A stretch of 20,770 nucleotides of DNA from Brevibacillus sp. (GTDB lineage: Bacteria > Bacillota > Bacilli > Brevibacillales > Brevibacillaceae), in assembly GCA_029240815.1 (NCBI GenBank), contig JARDZO010000070.1, forward strand, positions 1 through 20,770, in the 5' to 3' direction. The notes under the pieces are model-generated. The model was not told the DNA's origin. It ran no database searches and was given only the letters and a program-made list of their open reading frames with translations. The position numbers and the translations under genes were made by a program. Below, piece after piece: positions 2,516 through 19,262 of the stretch. Numbering within the stretch: the stretch's first letter is position 1; every line of letters begins with the position of its first letter.

Positions 2516-3730
2516 ATGGAGACATGGCGGCGTAACTTATACGTGTTGTGTGGTTCATTGTTTGTTGTCATGATGGCGATGAGCATGATCATGCCGTTTT
2601 TACCGCTGTATATTCAGCAGGATTTTGGTATTGAAGATGAGCATCAGGTAACTGCCTGGGCAGGGATCATTTTTGGGGCCAACTTTTTGACGGCCGGTCT
2701 GGTTTCACCGATCTGGGGGAATCTGGCAGATAAGCACGGGCGCAAGATCATGATTTTGCGCTCCGGATACTTCATGTCGATCACTGTAGCGTTGACCGGT
2801 TTTGCCGGGAGCCTGTGGCAATTATTGGCCCTGCGTTTGATCAATGGATTGGTGGGTGGCATCATTCCCGCCAGTACCGCACTTGTCGCGTCTTCTGTCC
2901 CTCGGGAACGAATTGGCTGGGCGCAAGGGATGCTCCAGTCGTGCGTCACGGCGGGCACGATCATGGGTCCGCTGTTTGGCGGGTTTTTGGCTGGACGTAT
3001 TGGTTTTCGAATGATCTTCGTCATTACGGGCTGTTTGTTGTTGCTGGCGACATTGGTCATTACGCTTACGGTGAAAGAGAACTTTGTTCCGCCTGAAAAA
3101 GAAGACCGGTCCAATCTTCGGGAAGATTTTCGCATGATTTTCTCGTCAAAGGAATTGCCGGCGCTCTTTTTTGTAACCGTGATGATCCAGTTTGCTTTGT
3201 TTAGCATCGTACCTGTACTGCCCATTTACATCTCTCAACTATTGGGCTCGGAAGGAAGCAAAGTGGCCCTGTGGGCAGGGATTGTCCAAGCGGCGATGGG
3301 GGTGGCAAACGTATTTGCCGCACCGCGATTGGGTATGCTGGGTGATCGATTCGGTTCACAAAAAGTGCTTTTGTTTGCCCTGTTGGCATCGTCCATCGTC
3401 TTTATCCCGCAAGGACTGGTCGCTACTGTCTGGCAGCTGGTCGTCCTGCGTTTCCTGCTGGGACTTTCACTGGGGGGATTGCTGCCGTCCGTCAACGCAT
3501 TGTTGCGCAGAGCGACTCCCACACATATGGTCAGTCGAGTCTACGGCTACAACCAGAGCTTTGTCAGCATCGGCAGTATGCTCGGGCCGATGATCGGCGG
3601 TTTTATGGCTGGCTATGTCAGCATCGAAGGCGTCTTTTTCATGACCAGCGCGTTTTTGCTGATTAATGCAGGATGGGTGTACTATACTTTCTTCTATCGC
3701 AACAAACCTTTACAGGGAACAGGTGCCTAA
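2516..3730 (+). CDS. MdtG-like MFS multidrug exporter
   Basis: A 404-residue integral membrane protein of the major facilitator superfamily, of the length expected for 12 helices (DHA1 drug/proton antiporters). The N-terminus (IMPFLPLYIQQ after the first helix) and the loop motif A GNLADKHGRKI (residues 68-78) resemble E. coli MdtG. Motif C-like glycines (AGTIMGPLFGG) lie near residue 145. The ATG at 2516 is preceded by GGGAGG (2501-2506), a strong site at good spacing. It follows ygaD by 80 bases without an obvious terminator or promoter, so cotranscription is likely. Proton-driven efflux of hydrophobic compounds is the family role; the actual substrates are not predictable here. Confidence 0.85.
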   Translation: METWRRNLYVLCGSLFVVMMAMSMIMPFLPLYIQQDFGIEDEHQVTAWAGIIFGANFLTAGLVSPIWGNLADKHGRKIMILRSGYFMSITVALTGFAGSLWQLLALRLINGLVGGIIPASTALVASSVPRERIGWAQGMLQSCVTAGTIMGPLFGGFLAGRIGFRMIFVITGCLLLLATLVITLTVKENFVPPEKEDRSNLREDFRMIFSSKELPALFFVTVMIQFALFSIVPVLPIYISQLLGSEGSKVALWAGIVQAAMGVANVFAAPRLGMLGDRFGSQKVLLFALLASSIVFIPQGLVATVWQLVVLRFLLGLSLGGLLPSVNALLRRATPTHMVSRVYGYNQSFVSIGSMLGPMIGGFMAGYVSIEGVFFMTSAFLLINAGWVYYTFFYRNKPLQGTGA

Positions 3731-3738
3731 TCTATAAT
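3709..3738 (+). promoter_or_regulatory. Sigma-A promoter for the second MFS operon
   Basis: TTTACA (3709-3714, five of six consensus bases) and TATAAT (3733-3738, perfect) are separated by 18 bases. The -35 box lies inside the last codons of the upstream MFS gene. The predicted transcription start is near 3745, inside the palindrome AGAAAATTTTCT at 3741-3752. The transcript would carry a leader of about 110 bases before the ATG at 3857. Confidence 0.65.
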
Positions 3739-3740
3739 AG

Positions 3741-3752
3741 AGAAAATTTTCT
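3741..3752. promoter_or_regulatory. 12-bp palindrome over the predicted transcription start
   Basis: AGAAAATTTTCT is a perfect palindrome that begins three bases after the TATAAT box and spans the likely +1. A repressor bound here would block initiation. Short AT-rich palindromes also arise by chance, so this is only a candidate operator. Confidence 0.35.
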
Positions 3753-3762
3753 GAAACGGGGT

Positions 3763-3851
3763 GTACCTCCATTGTGATCCTATGTCGGTTTGGAATGAAC
3801 GAAAAATGTTCATGAGGATATCGCGGATATTCGGAACCGACAGGGAGGTAC
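3763..3851 (+). promoter_or_regulatory. Structured leader that can sequester the ribosome binding site
   Basis: GTACCTCC (3763-3770) is the exact complement of GGAGGTAC (3844-3851), which contains the Shine-Dalgarno core of the MFS gene starting at 3857. Just inside it, TGTCGGTT (3783-3790) pairs exactly with AACCGACA (3835-3842). The two 8-bp helices stack with a 12-base bulge on one side and one base on the other. Two small hairpins, GAAC/GTTC (3797-3811) and ATATC/GATAT (3818-3830), fit in the apical loop. In this fold the ribosome binding site is fully paired, so translation should be low until the stem is opened. The pairings are read from the sequence; the regulatory role is inferred. 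Confidence 0.6.
3774..3815 (+). CDS. Candidate 13-codon leader peptide
   Basis: A GTG at 3774 opens a 13-codon frame, MILCRFGMNEKCS, ending at TGA 3813-3815. GGGGTG (3758-3763) lies ten bases upstream and could serve as its ribosome binding site. Codons 4-6 form the 5' arm of the inner helix that masks the MFS ribosome binding site, so a ribosome translating or stalling here would open that helix. I recognise no known stalling motif, and a non-ATG start makes this tentative. Confidence 0.3.
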   Translation: MILCRFGMNEKCS

Positions 3852-3856
3852 CTTTC

Positions 3857-5101
3857 ATGTGGAATAGAAGGTTTATTTGTCTCTGGGGTGGTCAGACACT
3901 GGCCAACCTGGGGGACGTTTTTTATATTGTCGCGTTTATTTCAGCCATTTACTCTGCGACTGCATCTGTGATGTATACGGCATTGGTTCCGGTAGTCATC
4001 TTGACTGCACAATCCTTGGGAGGGCTGACGGCGCCTCTCCTTTTTCAAAAAATGACTCTGCCGCAAATGCTTGTTCGATCCCAAGCGGTAAAAACAATCC
4101 TTCTAGCGGCTGCAGCGTTCGCTGTGCCGATGGCTACCGAAGCTGGGAAAGAGATGGTTTGGGTTCTTTTTAGTCTGGGATGGGCGATCGCCTTTATGGA
4201 TGGGTGGGCCAATCCGGCGAGGAACGCACTTGTTCCCCAATTGGTGACAGGCACTGAGCTGATGCGAGCCAATGGACTATTGGCTGCGTCTGATCAAACG
4301 GTTTACTTTGCGGGCTGGGCAGCAGGGGGCTTGCTCGTTGCTGCGTTTGGGGATGGTGTGGTTTTATGGGGAACCGTCTTGGCGTACGCGGTGGCGACCA
4401 TAGCAATGCTAGGTGTTAGTCCGCGCATGGACATGGAGAGGCTGGAGCCTGTGCAAGCTATGCCTGACCATGCAAAAAAGGATTGGCTAACAGGCTGGAT
4501 GCTCATCCGCGATACGCCACTCGTGCGCTCGGTGGTTGCGATGGATGTACTGATCGGCTTGTCCAGTGCTGTCTGGATCGCAGCGATCATGCTGCCATTT
4601 GTTCTCGATGAGCTGGGAAGAGGGGAAGAGTGGTGGGGCTACTTAAACGCGAGCTACATGCTCGGCTCCATCGCAGGGGGCGCATTGCTCTTGGCGAATA
4701 CACAAAGACTACGCCATCAGCTGCCACGCTGGATCGTCATCGGGACGATCGGCTCGGGTGTGGTCACCCTTTGCTTTGGCAGTAGTACGAATCCTCTCCT
4801 CGCCTTGTTCTTTTCTTTTGCCTTGGGCCCGATGTACCAAATGCAGATGATCTCCAAGCAGACCCTGCTGCAGCAAGTAACAGCAATAGACAGACTTCCT
4901 TATGTCCTATCAGCAAAGGGAACGATTGATTCACTGGTCTTTGGTATTTCTGCCCTGATCATGGGAGCAGTTGCAGAATGGTTGGGGACTCGGGCTGTTT
5001 ACTTTCTATCGGCAGGTATTCTGGGGGTAGCCGTTCTATTCGCATGGCGGTTGCGCCAGCACTCTCCCATGATGATTGAAGAAACGGAGGGAAAAGCATG
5101 A
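3857..5101 (+). CDS. MFS exporter (MefA/EntS-like group)
   Basis: A 414-residue multi-helix membrane protein. The opening (FICLWGGQTLANLGDVFYIVAF) resembles the EntS/macrolide-efflux type of MFS exporter. The usual motif A between helices 2 and 3 is degenerate (LLFQKMTLPQML), so the usual acidic and basic pattern is missing. The frame extends upstream to GTG 3761, but I chose ATG 3857 because AGGGAGG (3842-3848) sits eight bases before it and the hydrophobic N-terminus begins there; the upstream 32 codons look like leader RNA. It has its own promoter and structured leader. Its last four bases (ATGA) overlap the start of the oxidoreductase gene, implying translational coupling. Likely role: efflux of a toxic compound; the substrate is unknown. 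Confidence 0.8.
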   Translation: MWNRRFICLWGGQTLANLGDVFYIVAFISAIYSATASVMYTALVPVVILTAQSLGGLTAPLLFQKMTLPQMLVRSQAVKTILLAAAAFAVPMATEAGKEMVWVLFSLGWAIAFMDGWANPARNALVPQLVTGTELMRANGLLAASDQTVYFAGWAAGGLLVAAFGDGVVLWGTVLAYAVATIAMLGVSPRMDMERLEPVQAMPDHAKKDWLTGWMLIRDTPLVRSVVAMDVLIGLSSAVWIAAIMLPFVLDELGRGEEWWGYLNASYMLGSIAGGALLLANTQRLRHQLPRWIVIGTIGSGVVTLCFGSSTNPLLALFFSFALGPMYQMQMISKQTLLQQVTAIDRLPYVLSAKGTIDSLVFGISALIMGAVAEWLGTRAVYFLSAGILGVAVLFAWRLRQHSPMMIEETEGKA

Positions 5102-5643
5102 ACGTCCTCGTATTGTACGGCAGCTCGAGAGATAACGGGAATACAGAGCAATTGACACAGCTCGTATTGGAAGGTGTGCCGCATACCAGTATCCGTTTGC
5201 GGGACAAAGACATTCAGTCCATACACGATCAGCGGCATGATCCCGAAGGCTTTTCATCGGTAGCTGATGACTACGATGAGGTGATCAATGCTGTACTGGA
5301 CCATGACGTACTCATTTTTGCCACTCCGATCTATTGGTACGGAATGTCAGGGCATATGAAAAACTTCGTCGATCGCTGGTCGCAGAGTCTGCGCGACAAT
5401 CGTTACAACTTCAAGCAGTCGATGGCGCTAAAGCAGGCCTATGTAATGGCGACAGGTGGCGATGAACCGCGGGTGAAGGGGCTGCCTCTCATCCAGCAAT
5501 TTCAATATATTTTCGGCTTCGTCAACATGCCGTTTGAAGGCTACATCATCGGGGAAGGCAACAAACCGGGTGATGTGCTGGAGGATAAGCGGGCTATTGC
5601 GGACGCAAAGATTTTGAACGGGCTGCTAAAAGCAAAACAATAG
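5098..5643 (+). CDS. Flavodoxin-fold NAD(P)H-dependent FMN oxidoreductase
   Basis: A 181-residue flavodoxin-fold protein of the NADPH-dependent FMN reductase/quinone reductase type, similar in size and motifs to Bacillus YwqN. The phosphate-binding loop GSSRDNGNTE starts at residue 8, and the flavin-ring loop PIYWYGMSGHMKNFVDRWS lies around residues 78-96. It would be cytosolic and reduce quinones, nitro or azo compounds, or flavin. GGAGGG (5086-5091) lies six bases before the ATG, inside the end of the MFS gene, and the ATGA overlap couples the two. Pairing an exporter with a reductase suggests joint handling of a redox-active or aromatic toxicant, which is inference. Confidence 0.87.
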   Translation: MNVLVLYGSSRDNGNTEQLTQLVLEGVPHTSIRLRDKDIQSIHDQRHDPEGFSSVADDYDEVINAVLDHDVLIFATPIYWYGMSGHMKNFVDRWSQSLRDNRYNFKQSMALKQAYVMATGGDEPRVKGLPLIQQFQYIFGFVNMPFEGYIIGEGNKPGDVLEDKRAIADAKILNGLLKAKQ

Positions 5644-16770: not shown

Positions 16771-17355
16771 TCACCGCGCGCTCACTGAAGGAACCTGATC
16801 CTTAATTAGCAGCATGGCGGCATGGTAGAAATGATCAGCTTTATACATAGATTTTTTCATGTAGGCCATCATGATGGCGCCACTATGGAGGATTTCCAAT
16901 TGGGAGGCAAGTGCTTCAGGGTCTCGGGCCCCTGCTTCCGTCGCCATTTGCTTGACGTGGCACCATAGAATGTGACGGCTCTCAACAGCCTTCGCATGGG
17001 CAGGATGCTCGATGTCGGGAAATTCCACTGCGGTATTCATATAGGGGCATCCTCGAAAACCGGGTTCCTTCATGCGATCCGATATTGATTGAAAAAGAAA
17101 GCGTAATTGTTCGATTGGTTGATTTGGAAAACGCAGTCGCGCTTCCTCGATCCGCTCCAAACTTCTGGGAAGACGCTGCTCCAAAAAAGCCACGATCAGA
17201 TCGTCCTTCGTAGCAAAATTACGGTAAAAGCTGGCTTTTGCCACCCCGGATTCCGCGATAATGCGATCGATGCCGACAGCACGTATCCCTTCTTGATAAA
17301 ACAATTCAGAAGCAACCTGCAAAATCCGTTCTTTGGCGGACTCCTTTTTATCCAT
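16771..17355 (-). CDS. TetR-family repressor of the adjacent exporter
   Basis: A 194-residue TetR-type regulator. Residues about 5-55 are the DNA-binding domain (ERILQVASELFYQEG, then the helix-turn-helix GIDRIIAESGVAKASFYRNFATKDDL). The ligand-binding half contains FRGCPYMNTAVEFPD, characteristic of one TetR subgroup often paired with exporters. The frame extends seven codons further (ATG at 17376), but AAGGAG lies 12 bases before ATG 17355 while the upstream ATG has only a poor site; either is possible. It is divergent from the DHA2 exporter, and two identical palindromes lie between them, so it most likely represses the exporter and itself until a drug-like ligand binds. Confidence 0.88.
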   Translation of the reverse strand: MDKKESAKERILQVASELFYQEGIRAVGIDRIIAESGVAKASFYRNFATKDDLIVAFLEQRLPRSLERIEEARLRFPNQPIEQLRFLFQSISDRMKEPGFRGCPYMNTAVEFPDIEHPAHAKAVESRHILWCHVKQMATEAGARDPEALASQLEILHSGAIMMAYMKKSMYKADHFYHAAMLLIKDQVPSVSAR

Positions 17356-17424
17356 ATCGATGAATCGCTCCTTCATGAATAGTAGAAAACGCCCCGAACA
17401 TTACCAAAAAATCCAAAAACCTGA

Positions 17425-17453
17425 TTGACATGAGACAGATCTGTCTGTATCAT
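17425..17453 (+). promoter_or_regulatory. Sigma-A promoter of the DHA2 exporter
   Basis: TTGACA (17425-17430, perfect) and TATCAT (17448-17453, one mismatch) are 17 bases apart. The spacer is filled by the first operator palindrome. The predicted start near 17460 leaves a 5' leader of about 115 bases containing the second operator. Confidence 0.75.
17433..17446. promoter_or_regulatory. TetR operator O1
   Basis: AGACAGATCTGTCT is a perfect 14-bp palindrome lying between the -35 and -10 boxes of the exporter promoter, a classic position for repression by steric block. Confidence 0.75.
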
Positions 17454-17470
17454 TTGGTTATCAACGAGAC

Positions 17471-17484
17471 AGACAGATCTGTCT
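17471..17484. promoter_or_regulatory. TetR operator O2
   Basis: A second exact copy of AGACAGATCTGTCT, 38 bp from the first and just downstream of the predicted start of the exporter transcript. Two copies of the same 14-bp palindrome in one intergenic region strongly indicate protein-binding sites. Confidence 0.75.
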
Positions 17485-17573
17485 ACTTCTATTTTAGTCA
17501 AGTTTCTCTTCTTCTGTCAATTGACATTCCTTCCTTTTGGATGCGAAAAACTTGGGTGAAAGGGTGTTATCGG

Positions 17574-19262
17574 ATGTCCACAGCGGCAAAATCTATTTCC
17601 TCGGATCAGATGGTCACGAGGGCAGAGGCCAAATCGAGGGTAAATGTGATGCTGGCCGTCATGCTTCTCTCGGTATTTATGACAGTGGCCAATATTTTTA
17701 TCGTAAATGTGGCGACACCATCGCTGCAGCGAGGTCTCCATTCTAGCTTTTCCGGCGTGCAATTTGTGATCACAGGTTATACCTTGGCCTATGCGGTCGC
17801 TCTCATTATCGGGGGGCGCTTGGGAGATCGGTTTGGCCGGAAAAGGATGCTGGCCTACGGAGTAGCGGGCTTTACGATTACGTCTTTATTGAGCGGATTT
17901 TCCTCCGGGGTGAATATGCTTATTCTGTTTCGCATTTTGCAAGGCCTTTGTGCTGCGATGATTGCCCCACAAGTGCTTGCCTTAATCCAGATCAATTACG
18001 TTCCTGAAAAACGGGGTGCCGTGTTCGGGTTATATGGTGCAGCACAGGGACTGGCGGCATCGACAGGGCAGATCATCGGTGGCTTGCTGTTGCATTGGAA
18101 TCCACTGGGGCTTGAATGGAGGACGGTATTTTTCTTTAGCGTGCCTTTCGGAATCATCATCCTGGCTATGCTCCCTTTTATCTCAGAATCCAAGAGTGCT
18201 GTGAAAGCAAAGCTGGATTGGATAGGTGCATTGAGTGTGGCGATCGGCTTGCTTATGATGGTATTTCCGCTCGTGCAGGGACAGAAGGAAGGTTGGCCGC
18301 TATGGCTTGATGTATGCTTGATCTTGTCAATACCGGTGCTAGCGGTCTTCGTCTGGCATGAACGAAGGGTAGCACAGGGTGGCGGTATTCCTTTTATGAA
18401 CGTGGACTTGTTCAAACAGAAAGTGTTTACCGTAGGCATGCTCATCGTGTTTTTGCTGCTATGCTCACAGGCAGCCTTCTTTCTGGTAGCGGCTTATTTT
18501 CTCCAGATGGGAATCGGCTTTACCGCACTCCAGGCGGGATTGGTTATCCTGCCGATGGGCATGGGATATTTTCTGGCCTCGCTCTTCTCTTCCAAAGCGG
18601 TCGCCAAATATGGTGCACATGTTCTTACTTTTGGAGCGGTTCTGAGCGTAATCGGCTTTTTGTCCCTCGCGATCACTGTTCACGCGACAGGGGTTGCCTT
18701 TCAAGGATACGAATCGATTCCCGCCTTACTGATTCTGGGGATCGGTCAGGGGGCGATCGCAGCTCCTTTGACCAATACGGTGCTTGCTAAAATCCGCAGC
18801 AGCGATATTGGCTCTGCTTCGGGTATCCTGACGACAGGTATGCAAGTCGCCTTTGCATTGGGGATTGCCCTGATCGGTGTGATATTTCTGAATACGATGA
18901 GATATCATGCGGACACGGTAAGTGGTGAGGTCGCGCAACAGCTTCGTCAACATCTATCCGTGATTTCACAAGTAGACGCTCAAAACGAGATGATGGTGCA
19001 GCAATTCCGCAGCTGCTATGCGGATTTCGTAAAGACGAACGATCCTTCCGTATTGCCTGCAAGCTGCAAGATCAACTCAGAGCTGCCAGAGATCCAAAGC
19101 GCATTCAAGTCAAGTATCAAAGCTGCAAACGCACAAAATTACACGGATGCTTTTCAGCTATGCCTCTATTTGCTCGCGGTGATTAGCGCAGGTCTGTTGC
19201 TGCTGGTGCTGGCTTTGGCAAAAGGAAATCGGTCGACTGAACCGAATGGGGAAACAGGGTGA
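17574..19262 (+). CDS. DHA2-family (EmrB/QacA-like) MFS drug exporter
   Basis: A 562-residue membrane protein of the 14-helix DHA2 drug/proton antiporter family. Motif A GGRLGDRFGRK is at residues 80-90 and a GQIIGG glycine motif lies near helix 5. Helix 1 reads FMTVANIFIVNVATPS: the acidic residue usual in LDxTIVNVALP is absent. A long outside loop before the last helix (about residues 440-525) holds two cysteines (SCYAD, ASCKI) that could form a disulphide. The frame opens at 17430 inside the promoter. ATG 17574 is chosen because AAAGGGTG (17559-17566) precedes it at good spacing and a typical N-terminus follows. The twin operators and the divergent TetR gene imply induction by an exported compound. 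Confidence 0.9.
   Translation: MSTAAKSISSDQMVTRAEAKSRVNVMLAVMLLSVFMTVANIFIVNVATPSLQRGLHSSFSGVQFVITGYTLAYAVALIIGGRLGDRFGRKRMLAYGVAGFTITSLLSGFSSGVNMLILFRILQGLCAAMIAPQVLALIQINYVPEKRGAVFGLYGAAQGLAASTGQIIGGLLLHWNPLGLEWRTVFFFSVPFGIIILAMLPFISESKSAVKAKLDWIGALSVAIGLLMMVFPLVQGQKEGWPLWLDVCLILSIPVLAVFVWHERRVAQGGGIPFMNVDLFKQKVFTVGMLIVFLLLCSQAAFFLVAAYFLQMGIGFTALQAGLVILPMGMGYFLASLFSSKAVAKYGAHVLTFGAVLSVIGFLSLAITVHATGVAFQGYESIPALLILGIGQGAIAAPLTNTVLAKIRSSDIGSASGILTTGMQVAFALGIALIGVIFLNTMRYHADTVSGEVAQQLRQHLSVISQVDAQNEMMVQQFRSCYADFVKTNDPSVLPASCKINSELPEIQSAFKSSIKAANAQNYTDAFQLCLYLLAVISAGLLLLVLALAKGNRSTEPNGETG

What the first reader, a model, noticed from the sequence alone, without database searches (positions are those of the whole stretch)
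3709..3857. Leader of the MFS/oxidoreductase operon looks like a drug-inducible translational attenuator
Seen: a strong promoter, then GTACCTCC (3763-3770) exactly complementary to GGAGGTAC (3844-3851), which contains the Shine-Dalgarno core, plus a second exact 8-bp helix (3783-3790 with 3835-3842) inside it. A 13-codon frame (GTG 3774 to TGA 3815) overlaps the 5' arm of the inner helix. Known: erm, cat and some efflux genes are switched on when a stalled ribosome on a leader peptide frees a masked ribosome binding site. Inference: the exporter, and through the ATGA overlap the reductase, are induced by a ribosome-targeting compound they handle.
Basis: partly seen in the sequence, partly recalled or inferred. 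Interest (0 to 1): 0.72.

Follow-up and report, generated by a model that had tools for sequence, protein, structure and literature searches.

The report
Two-codon ribosome switch for exporter gene
Upstream of an efflux-pump gene in a Brevibacillus-like bacterium lies the shortest possible reading frame, a start codon followed at once by a stop codon, beside an RNA hairpin that hides the pump's ribosome-binding site; the same layout recurs in many related bacteria, which suggests that a ribosome held up on those two codons switches the pump on.

Summary
The leader-peptide part fails: the GTG frame is not conserved, and two Brevibacillus lineages have GTA there. What is conserved overlaps it: TTG-TGA (3772-3777), a start codon followed directly by a stop, with its own Shine-Dalgarno (3758-3763). 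A start-stop with an SD precedes the homologous MFS gene in 69 of 79 relatives, against 37 of 330 neighbouring genes and 15% of shuffles, and in 33 of 42 further loci. All three start and all three stop codons occur. The MFS gene's SD is predicted to pair inside the footprint of a ribosome parked on the start-stop (0.52 against 0.09 in shuffles), through 52 different stems in 70 leaders. Best reading: a translational attenuator with no elongation codon. It cannot read a nascent peptide, only whether a ribosome leaves a start codon that has a stop in the A site. Seven paper searches aimed at it found no such attenuator. Inducer and substrate are unknown; induction was not tested.

The parts
3709..3738 (+). 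sigma-70-type promoter, TTTACA-18-TATAAT; the first hexamer lies inside the 3' end of the upstream MFS gene
   Evidence: 11 of 12; chance expectation 0.6 sites; similar promoters at the same place in several Brevibacillus relatives
3758..3763 (+). Shine-Dalgarno of the start-stop, GGGGTG (GAGGTG in most Brevibacillus relatives)
3763..3770 (+). anti-SD arm GTACCTCC, exactly complementary to 3844-3851
   Evidence: pairing of the MFS SD to -8..-2 of the start-stop
3772..3777 (+). start-stop uORF: TTG followed by TGA
   Evidence: TTG-TGA in 16 and TTG-TAA in 3 of 19 aligned Brevibacillus leaders; a start-stop with SD in 69 of 79 relatives and 33 of 42 further loci
3757..3787 (+). stretch that a ribosome parked on TTG would cover (-15 to +15); inferred
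   Evidence: footprint size is recalled; used as the test window
3783..3790 (+). 5' arm of the inner helix
   Evidence: core GTCGG invariant in 19 Brevibacillus leaders
3835..3842 (+). 3' arm of the inner helix
   Evidence: core CCGAC invariant in 19 Brevibacillus leaders
3844..3851 (+). Shine-Dalgarno of the MFS gene, masked: GGAGGTAC
   Evidence: unpaired probability 0.12 free, 0.29 with the footprint blocked
3857..5101 (+). MFS exporter gene, 414 aa, nearest the DHA3 drug:H+ antiporters
   Evidence: PF07690 above its cut-off; TIGR00900 93 bits (cut-off 319.6) and NF041056 173 bits (cut-off 575), both below cut-off; that TIGR00900 stands for DHA3 is recalled
5098..5643 (+). NADPH-dependent FMN reductase-like gene, overlapping the MFS gene by ATGA
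   Evidence: PF03358 and PF02525 above cut-off; neighbour in 10 of 12 Brevibacillus loci L001-L012

Best explanation
The leader is a translational attenuator whose sensor is a start-stop uORF with no elongation codon. Resting state: the SD of the MFS gene is closed in a hairpin, and ribosomes that start on TTG-TGA release fMet and leave fast enough for the hairpin to re-form. Induced state: a compound that keeps a ribosome with fMet-tRNA on the start codon (by blocking release-factor action, exit from initiation, or recycling) parks it over about 3757-3787. It covers the anti-SD arm 3763-3770 and part of the inner helix, so the MFS SD opens and the exporter, with the overlapping reductase, is made. 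Shown here: conservation of the start-stop, of its SD, and of a masking stem placed inside the footprint. Inferred: that the start-stop is translated, the stall, the induction, the inducer, and that the exporter removes it.
For: Start-stop with SD in 69 of 79 relatives (66 with an SD match of 5 or more) against 15% (4.8%) of shuffles and 37 (11) of 330 neighbouring genes. Further loci: 33 of 42 (25 with SD 5 or more); nine further Brevibacillus leaders by eye; 3 of 6 plasmid copies by eye. On the protein tree the label needs 4 changes against 11.4 in shuffles, 0 of 500 as low. Starts ATG 32, GTG 20, TTG 18; stops TAA 43, TGA 17, TAG 10; no frame relation to the MFS start (25, 23, 22). SD pairing inside the footprint 0.519 against 0.092 shuffled, 61 of 70 above their own shuffles; 52 distinct stems in 70 leaders, 43 of 70 with at most 5 of 100 shuffles as good. 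Passages of papers: start-codon stalling on toiL by tetracycline and retapamulin frees the downstream SD (PMC12121999); thermorubin slows RF2 release of fMet on a Met-Stop mRNA 550-fold without blocking initiation (PMC9938272).
Against: No induction, translation or stalling data. Blocking the footprint raises the predicted SD accessibility only from 0.26 to 0.47 on average, by more than 0.3 in 24 of 70, and lowers it in some leaders (such as L025, L034, L036, L042, L046); in the window 0.12 to 0.29, and no shifted-footprint control was run for that measure. 10 of 79 and 9 of 42 relatives lack a start-stop, and about one in seven to nine would show one by chance. In 27 of 70 leaders the masking stem is matched by more than 5 of 100 shuffles, the window's among them (7). 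Within Brevibacillus the inner helix core never varies. In 2.4 Mb of one Brevibacillus genome start-stops upstream of genes are otherwise at chance level, 29 of 1127. The substrate of the exporter is unknown.
Confidence: 0.7

Rival explanations
1. The start-stop is a loading or termination-reinitiation site: ribosomes terminate there and are handed on to the MFS start, or wait there as a standby, with no drug sensing. It would set the basal output of a structured leader.
For: RF2-dependent termination-reinitiation at AUGUGA and GUGUGA sites is shown in E. coli (PMC9841429, passages). The start-stop has a good SD in most leaders.
Against: The MFS start lies 44-118 nt downstream and has its own SD; the anti-SD arm sits in the footprint, which plain reinitiation does not need.
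Confidence: 0.14
2. The leader senses a non-drug signal at the same step: release-factor or recycling activity, initiator-tRNA formylation, or a small molecule such as borate, as the plant AUG-stop does.
For: In Arabidopsis an AUGUAA in the 5' UTR of the NIP5;1 boric-acid channel mRNA stalls ribosomes with boron (PMC11915504, passages). All three stop codons occur.
Against: The controlled protein looks like a drug exporter. The plant mechanism rests on eRF1, which is not related by descent to bacterial release factors (recalled).
Confidence: 0.09
3. One reading: the 13-codon frame GTG 3774 to TGA 3815 encodes a stalling leader peptide.
For: The frame exists and overlaps the 5' arm of the inner helix.
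Against: GTG at that place in 9 of 13 Brevibacillus leaders and 17 of 70 overall; the peptides differ in length and sequence. The start-stop is kept where the GTG is lost.
Confidence: 0.03
4. A riboswitch or a protein-bound leader, in which the start-stop is incidental.
For: A long stable structure with an invariant GTCGG/CCGAC core within Brevibacillus.
Against: No Rfam match at E up to 1. Between genera the stems differ (52 in 70 leaders); the start-stop, its SD and the masking are what recur.
Confidence: 0.03

Closest known systems
Translation attenuators of erm and cat genes (leader-peptide stalling; recalled, with the review passages)
   Same: An SD-preceded uORF, a masked SD of the resistance-type gene, and release expected when a ribosome stays on the uORF.
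   Different: Here the uORF has no codon after the start: no peptide, so no stalling motif.
Start-codon-stalling uORFs: toiL of E. coli, vmlR of B. subtilis (PMC12121999, passages)
   Same: The sensed event is a ribosome held at the start codon, and base-pairing to the downstream SD is relieved.
   Different: Those uORFs have several to many codons (shortest mentioned there: four); here the second codon is a stop, so the A site waits for a release factor and not for a tRNA.
AUG-stop of Arabidopsis NIP5;1 (PMC11915504, passages)
   Same: A minimal start-stop ORF in the leader of a transporter gene as a ribosome-stall sensor.
   Different: Eukaryotic, with mRNA decay and eRF1; no SD masking. Resemblance by convergence only.
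Bacterial start-stop sites from initiation profiling (C. jejuni and E. coli, PMC11955535, passages) and narQ GUGUGA (PMC9841429, passages)
   Same: A start codon with an immediate stop, used by ribosomes.
   Different: The 18 C. jejuni ones are putative, internal and out of frame; narQ is overlapping-start reinitiation. In those passages none is an attenuator of an efflux gene.

Membership tests
Ribosome-mediated translation attenuator | uORF with a usable SD upstream of the controlled gene | tested here: met
   69 of 79 relatives, 33 of 42 further loci; by sequence only
Ribosome-mediated translation attenuator | SD of the controlled gene sequestered in the leader RNA | tested here: met
   predicted: SD unpaired probability below 0.5 in 61 of 70 leaders; footprint pairing 0.519 against 0.092
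Ribosome-mediated translation attenuator | a ribosome stalled on the uORF opens that SD | tested here: inconclusive
   mean accessibility 0.26 to 0.47; gain above 0.3 in 24 of 70
Ribosome-mediated translation attenuator | induction by a ribosome-targeting drug | not testable with these tools
   needs a reporter
Leader-peptide attenuator (erm/cat type) | conserved leader peptide or stalling motif | tested here: not met
   no codon between start and stop; the 13-codon frame is not conserved; 29 of 70 leaders have any longer in-frame ORF, at no constant place
Transcription attenuator (mef/mel, bmrCD type) | intrinsic terminator in the leader | tested here: not met
   0 terminator-like sites in 3600-3900; relatives not scanned
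Known riboswitch or RNA family (Rfam 15) | match to a covariance model | tested here: not met
   window none; 3700-3900 none at E up to 1; 7 relatives: only a T-box in L015, far from the leader
DHA3 drug:H+ antiporters | above a curated family cut-off | tested here: inconclusive
   general MFS_1 (PF07690) above cut-off; TIGR00900 and NF041056 below theirs; the same below-cut-off pattern in 8 of 8 relatives scanned
Eukaryotic AUG-stop boron sensor | stall with borate at the start-stop | not testable with these tools
   needs an assay

The most novel reading that the evidence does not exclude
A widespread class of bacterial start-stop attenuators reads one single event, the exit of a ribosome from a start codon that has a stop codon in the A site. 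It is a natural, in-cell form of the Met-Stop fMet-release assay. It would respond to inhibitors of release, recycling or first-step exit whatever the nascent peptide, and would be a bacterial counterpart, by convergence, of the eukaryotic AUG-stop sensor. The exporters it controls would then pump a class of translation inhibitors not yet recognised as their substrates.
Probability: 0.4. Interest if true: 0.87.

Novelty: new variant of a known kind. Interest (0 to 1): 0.75.

Why it matters
Attenuators of resistance genes are usually found and explained through their leader peptides. A conserved leader without a peptide separates the steps at the start codon (release, exit from initiation, recycling) from elongation, and would give a ready reporter for compounds that act there. 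It escapes a common uORF search: uORF4u takes at least three codons by default (PMC10219788, passages). It also marks a family of exporters in many Bacillales, with copies on plasmids of Staphylococcus, Cytobacillus and Lacticaseibacillus, as probably tied to translation stress.

Tried and rejected
The 13-codon frame: rejected by comparison. A longer leader ORF ending at the same stop: 29 of 70 leaders have any in-frame start upstream, at no constant place; in the window the only one is 33 codons upstream, before the promoter. Riboswitch or known RNA family: no match. Transcription attenuator: no terminator-like site in 3600-3900. A general start-stop regulon: in 2.4 of 6.17 Mb of one genome (G010), 29 of 1127 genes with at least 90 nt upstream have a start-stop (SD 5 or more), close to the 11 of 330, and the MFS leader has the highest masking score (0.65) of the 30 sites; the rest of that genome and other genera were not surveyed. 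Covariation inside Brevibacillus: little, since the helix core is invariant; the pair-counting tool was not run. A link to RiPP clusters was followed because the S. aureus plasmid copy lies beside two HExxH peptide hydroxylase genes and one paper on biphenomycin has an MFS gene in its cluster (PMC12707348, passages); this gave nothing for the window. Solved structures: no chain similar by sequence at E 0.01. Distant-mode DNA search of plasmids with 3640-3960: no match. Phages, with the L024 protein at E 1e-20: no match. Viral contigs: two distant homologues, no start-stop seen by eye.

Papers: ten searches were made. Seven were aimed at start-stop or efflux attenuators; three at ryptide/RiPP, fMet release and borate. 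No listed title or abstract start described a start-stop attenuator of a resistance or efflux gene. The listings were capped (25 of 33, 40 of 123, 20 of 30, 30 of 67), and the library is open-access only without a bioRxiv collection, so this is no proof of absence. Passages were read of PMC11955535, PMC9841429, PMC12121999, PMC13410324, PMC10219788, PMC9938272, PMC11915504 and PMC12707348; no paper was read whole, and all others were seen as listings only.
Full report
WHAT IS IN THE WINDOW. The window is probably from a Brevibacillus: its MFS protein is 92% identical to a protein of B. choshinensis (P0002); no whole genome is held for it. The MFS gene 3857-5101 follows, in the same direction, an ntdP-like gene, an ABC exporter gene and an MdtG-like MFS gene, and overlaps an FMN reductase-like gene by ATGA. 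The helix pair is not chance: 0 of 4000 shuffles had an exact 8-bp SD helix with a second 8-bp helix inside it. Fold z is -3.11 for 3745-3875 and -2.12 for 3745-3900.

WHAT IS CONSERVED. Relatives of the MFS protein were fetched from named genomes (the best 80 of 165 are kept). The Brevibacillus leaders of the window's type (L001-L012) have an SD (GAGGTG or GGGGTG; AAAGGAG in L012), a short C-rich stretch, then TTG followed at once by TGA or TAA. In 19 aligned leaders the hexamer is TTGTGA in 16 and TTGTAA in 3; the change to TAA removes the GTG and keeps the stop. Outside that group the same place holds ATG-TAA, GTG-TAA, ATG-TGA, ATG-TAG and other combinations.

CONTROLS. One fixed rule was used: a start codon, an immediate stop, and an SD match at usable spacing, between -175 and -20 of the MFS match. 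It was met in 69 of 79 loci (66 with an SD match of 5 or more); L018 was dropped beforehand because its match lacks the N-terminus. Dinucleotide shuffles of the same stretches gave 15% and 4.8%. Other genes in the flanks of the same loci, with starts chosen automatically, gave 37 and 11 of 330. The ten misses are L014, three Geobacillus (L044, L050, L051) and six of the Paenibacillus polymyxa group (L066, L067, L071, L074, L077, L079). On a protein tree of 82 rows, in which two viral-contig homologues (no start-stop seen by eye) count as lacking it, the label needs 4 changes against 11.4 in shuffles, 0 of 500 as low. Because the rule looks for start-stops, it is no separate evidence that every second codon is a stop; the counts against controls are the evidence.

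FURTHER LOCI. Whole-genome searches and one fetch gave 53 further loci that were put to the same rule; the script dropped 11 as exact copies of earlier ones. L234-L243, L246-L248, L250, L254, L255 and L285, from genomes already counted, were not given to it. 33 of 42 had a start-stop (25 with an SD of 5 or more); misses were L253, L271, L291, L293, L295, L296, L301, L302, L303. Some of the 42 are second copies in one genome, and some are close kin of each other. By eye, nine further distinct Brevibacillus leaders (L085, L086, L089-L092, L094, L096, L097) all have TTGTGA, L105 has GTGTGA (the same locus as L249, already in the 42), and L104 and L106 (fragments) and L107 (a paralogue) show none. 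Of 21 plasmid records with a homologue six were read: S. aureus pPH1-1 (L228), Cytobacillus (L231) and, 133 nt upstream with a weak SD, Lacticaseibacillus (L230) show one by eye; L229, L232, L233 do not.

THE MASK. In 70 leaders (window and 69 loci) the SD region of the MFS gene is predicted to pair with positions +9 to +17 of the start-stop, or, mainly in Brevibacillus, with -8 to -2. Pairing summed over the footprint -15 to +15 is 0.519, against 0.092 when the leader is shuffled around fixed start-stop and SD; 61 of 70 exceed their own shuffles. By a stem score, 43 of 70 are matched by at most 5 of 100 shuffles, with 52 different stem sequences, for example CTACCCC with GGGGTAG in L034 and TACTGCTC with GAGCAGTA in L076. 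The pairing is thus kept while its letters change. The window is not among the 43 (7 of 100). Against the model, blocking the footprint raises mean SD accessibility only from 0.26 to 0.47, by more than 0.3 in 24 of 70; it falls in some leaders, and in the window it goes from 0.12 to 0.29. No shifted-footprint control was run for this measure.

HOW IT PROBABLY WORKS. The ORF has one codon and a stop. It cannot carry a stall peptide, so it can only report how long a ribosome stays on a start codon whose next codon is a stop. Two published facts fit, both seen as passages. Ribosomes held at the start codon of the toiL uORF by tetracycline or retapamulin free the topAI SD (PMC12121999). Thermorubin does not block initiation but slows RF2 release of fMet from a Met-Stop mRNA 550-fold, and blocks recycling (PMC9938272); the Met-Stop mRNA of that assay is in effect this leader. 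Which compound induces, and which one the pump exports, is unknown. Macrolide exporter Mef(C) and multidrug exporter Tap models each match 4 of 8 relatives scanned, far below their cut-offs, and not the window's protein at E 0.001. One plasmid copy sits beside two peptide hydroxylase genes. All three stop codons occur, so dependence on one release factor alone is unlikely. Synteny differs between genera while the leader stays with the gene (the neighbours were seen only as first residues).

WHAT IS NOT SHOWN. Translation of the start-stop, stalling and induction are inferences. Termination-reinitiation, shown for AUGUGA and GUGUGA in E. coli (PMC9841429, passages), is the main rival, but the MFS start lies 44-118 nt away. 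A non-drug signal, as for the plant AUG-stop and boron (PMC11915504, passages), is not excluded. In 2.4 Mb of one Brevibacillus genome start-stops are otherwise at chance level (29 of 1127), and the MFS leader has the highest masking score of the 30 sites.

NOVELTY. Start-stop sites are known from bacterial initiation profiling as putative regulators (PMC11955535, passages), and start-codon stalling is known for longer uORFs. A conserved attenuator made of a start-stop was not found in the seven searches aimed at it (listed with their caps under Tried and rejected). A common uORF finder starts at three codons (PMC10219788, passages), which may be why it has not been described. It is built like a translation attenuator; it is not a leader-peptide attenuator, since that defining feature was tested and not met.

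Noticed in passing
L228 1853-5209 (S. aureus plasmid pPH1-1): An MFS homologue with an ATG-TAA start-stop leader lies directly behind two aKG-HExxH peptide hydroxylase genes (TIGR04267, above cut-off), a RiPP-like cluster on a mobilizable plasmid from a pheasant isolate.
   Followed up: partly
L044, L050, L051 upstream of the MFS gene: Geobacillus homologues have GGGGGAGGCTTCCATTG about 180 nt upstream of the match, but with CTT instead of a stop after the TTG; perhaps a lengthened or decayed leader.
   Followed up: no
L293 and L294: L294 has GTTCCGATGTGA upstream, and L293 in another genome has GTTCCGATGCGATG at the like place, so it fails the start-stop rule by one base.
   Followed up: no
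window 3761-5101: The MFS frame is open back to GTG 3761 (446 aa), through the whole hairpin; an automatic gene caller could take this longer start.
   Followed up: no
window 16771-19262: A TetR-family regulator gene (minus strand) faces away from an EmrB-like DHA2 MFS exporter gene, a second and ordinary-looking efflux unit.
   Followed up: no
L105/L249, upstream of the MFS gene: A GTG-TGA start-stop with a weak SD only 47 nt upstream; no masking stem was tested there.
   Followed up: no
L015 6415-6636: A T-box leader (RF00230, 117 bits), unrelated to the MFS leader.
   Followed up: no
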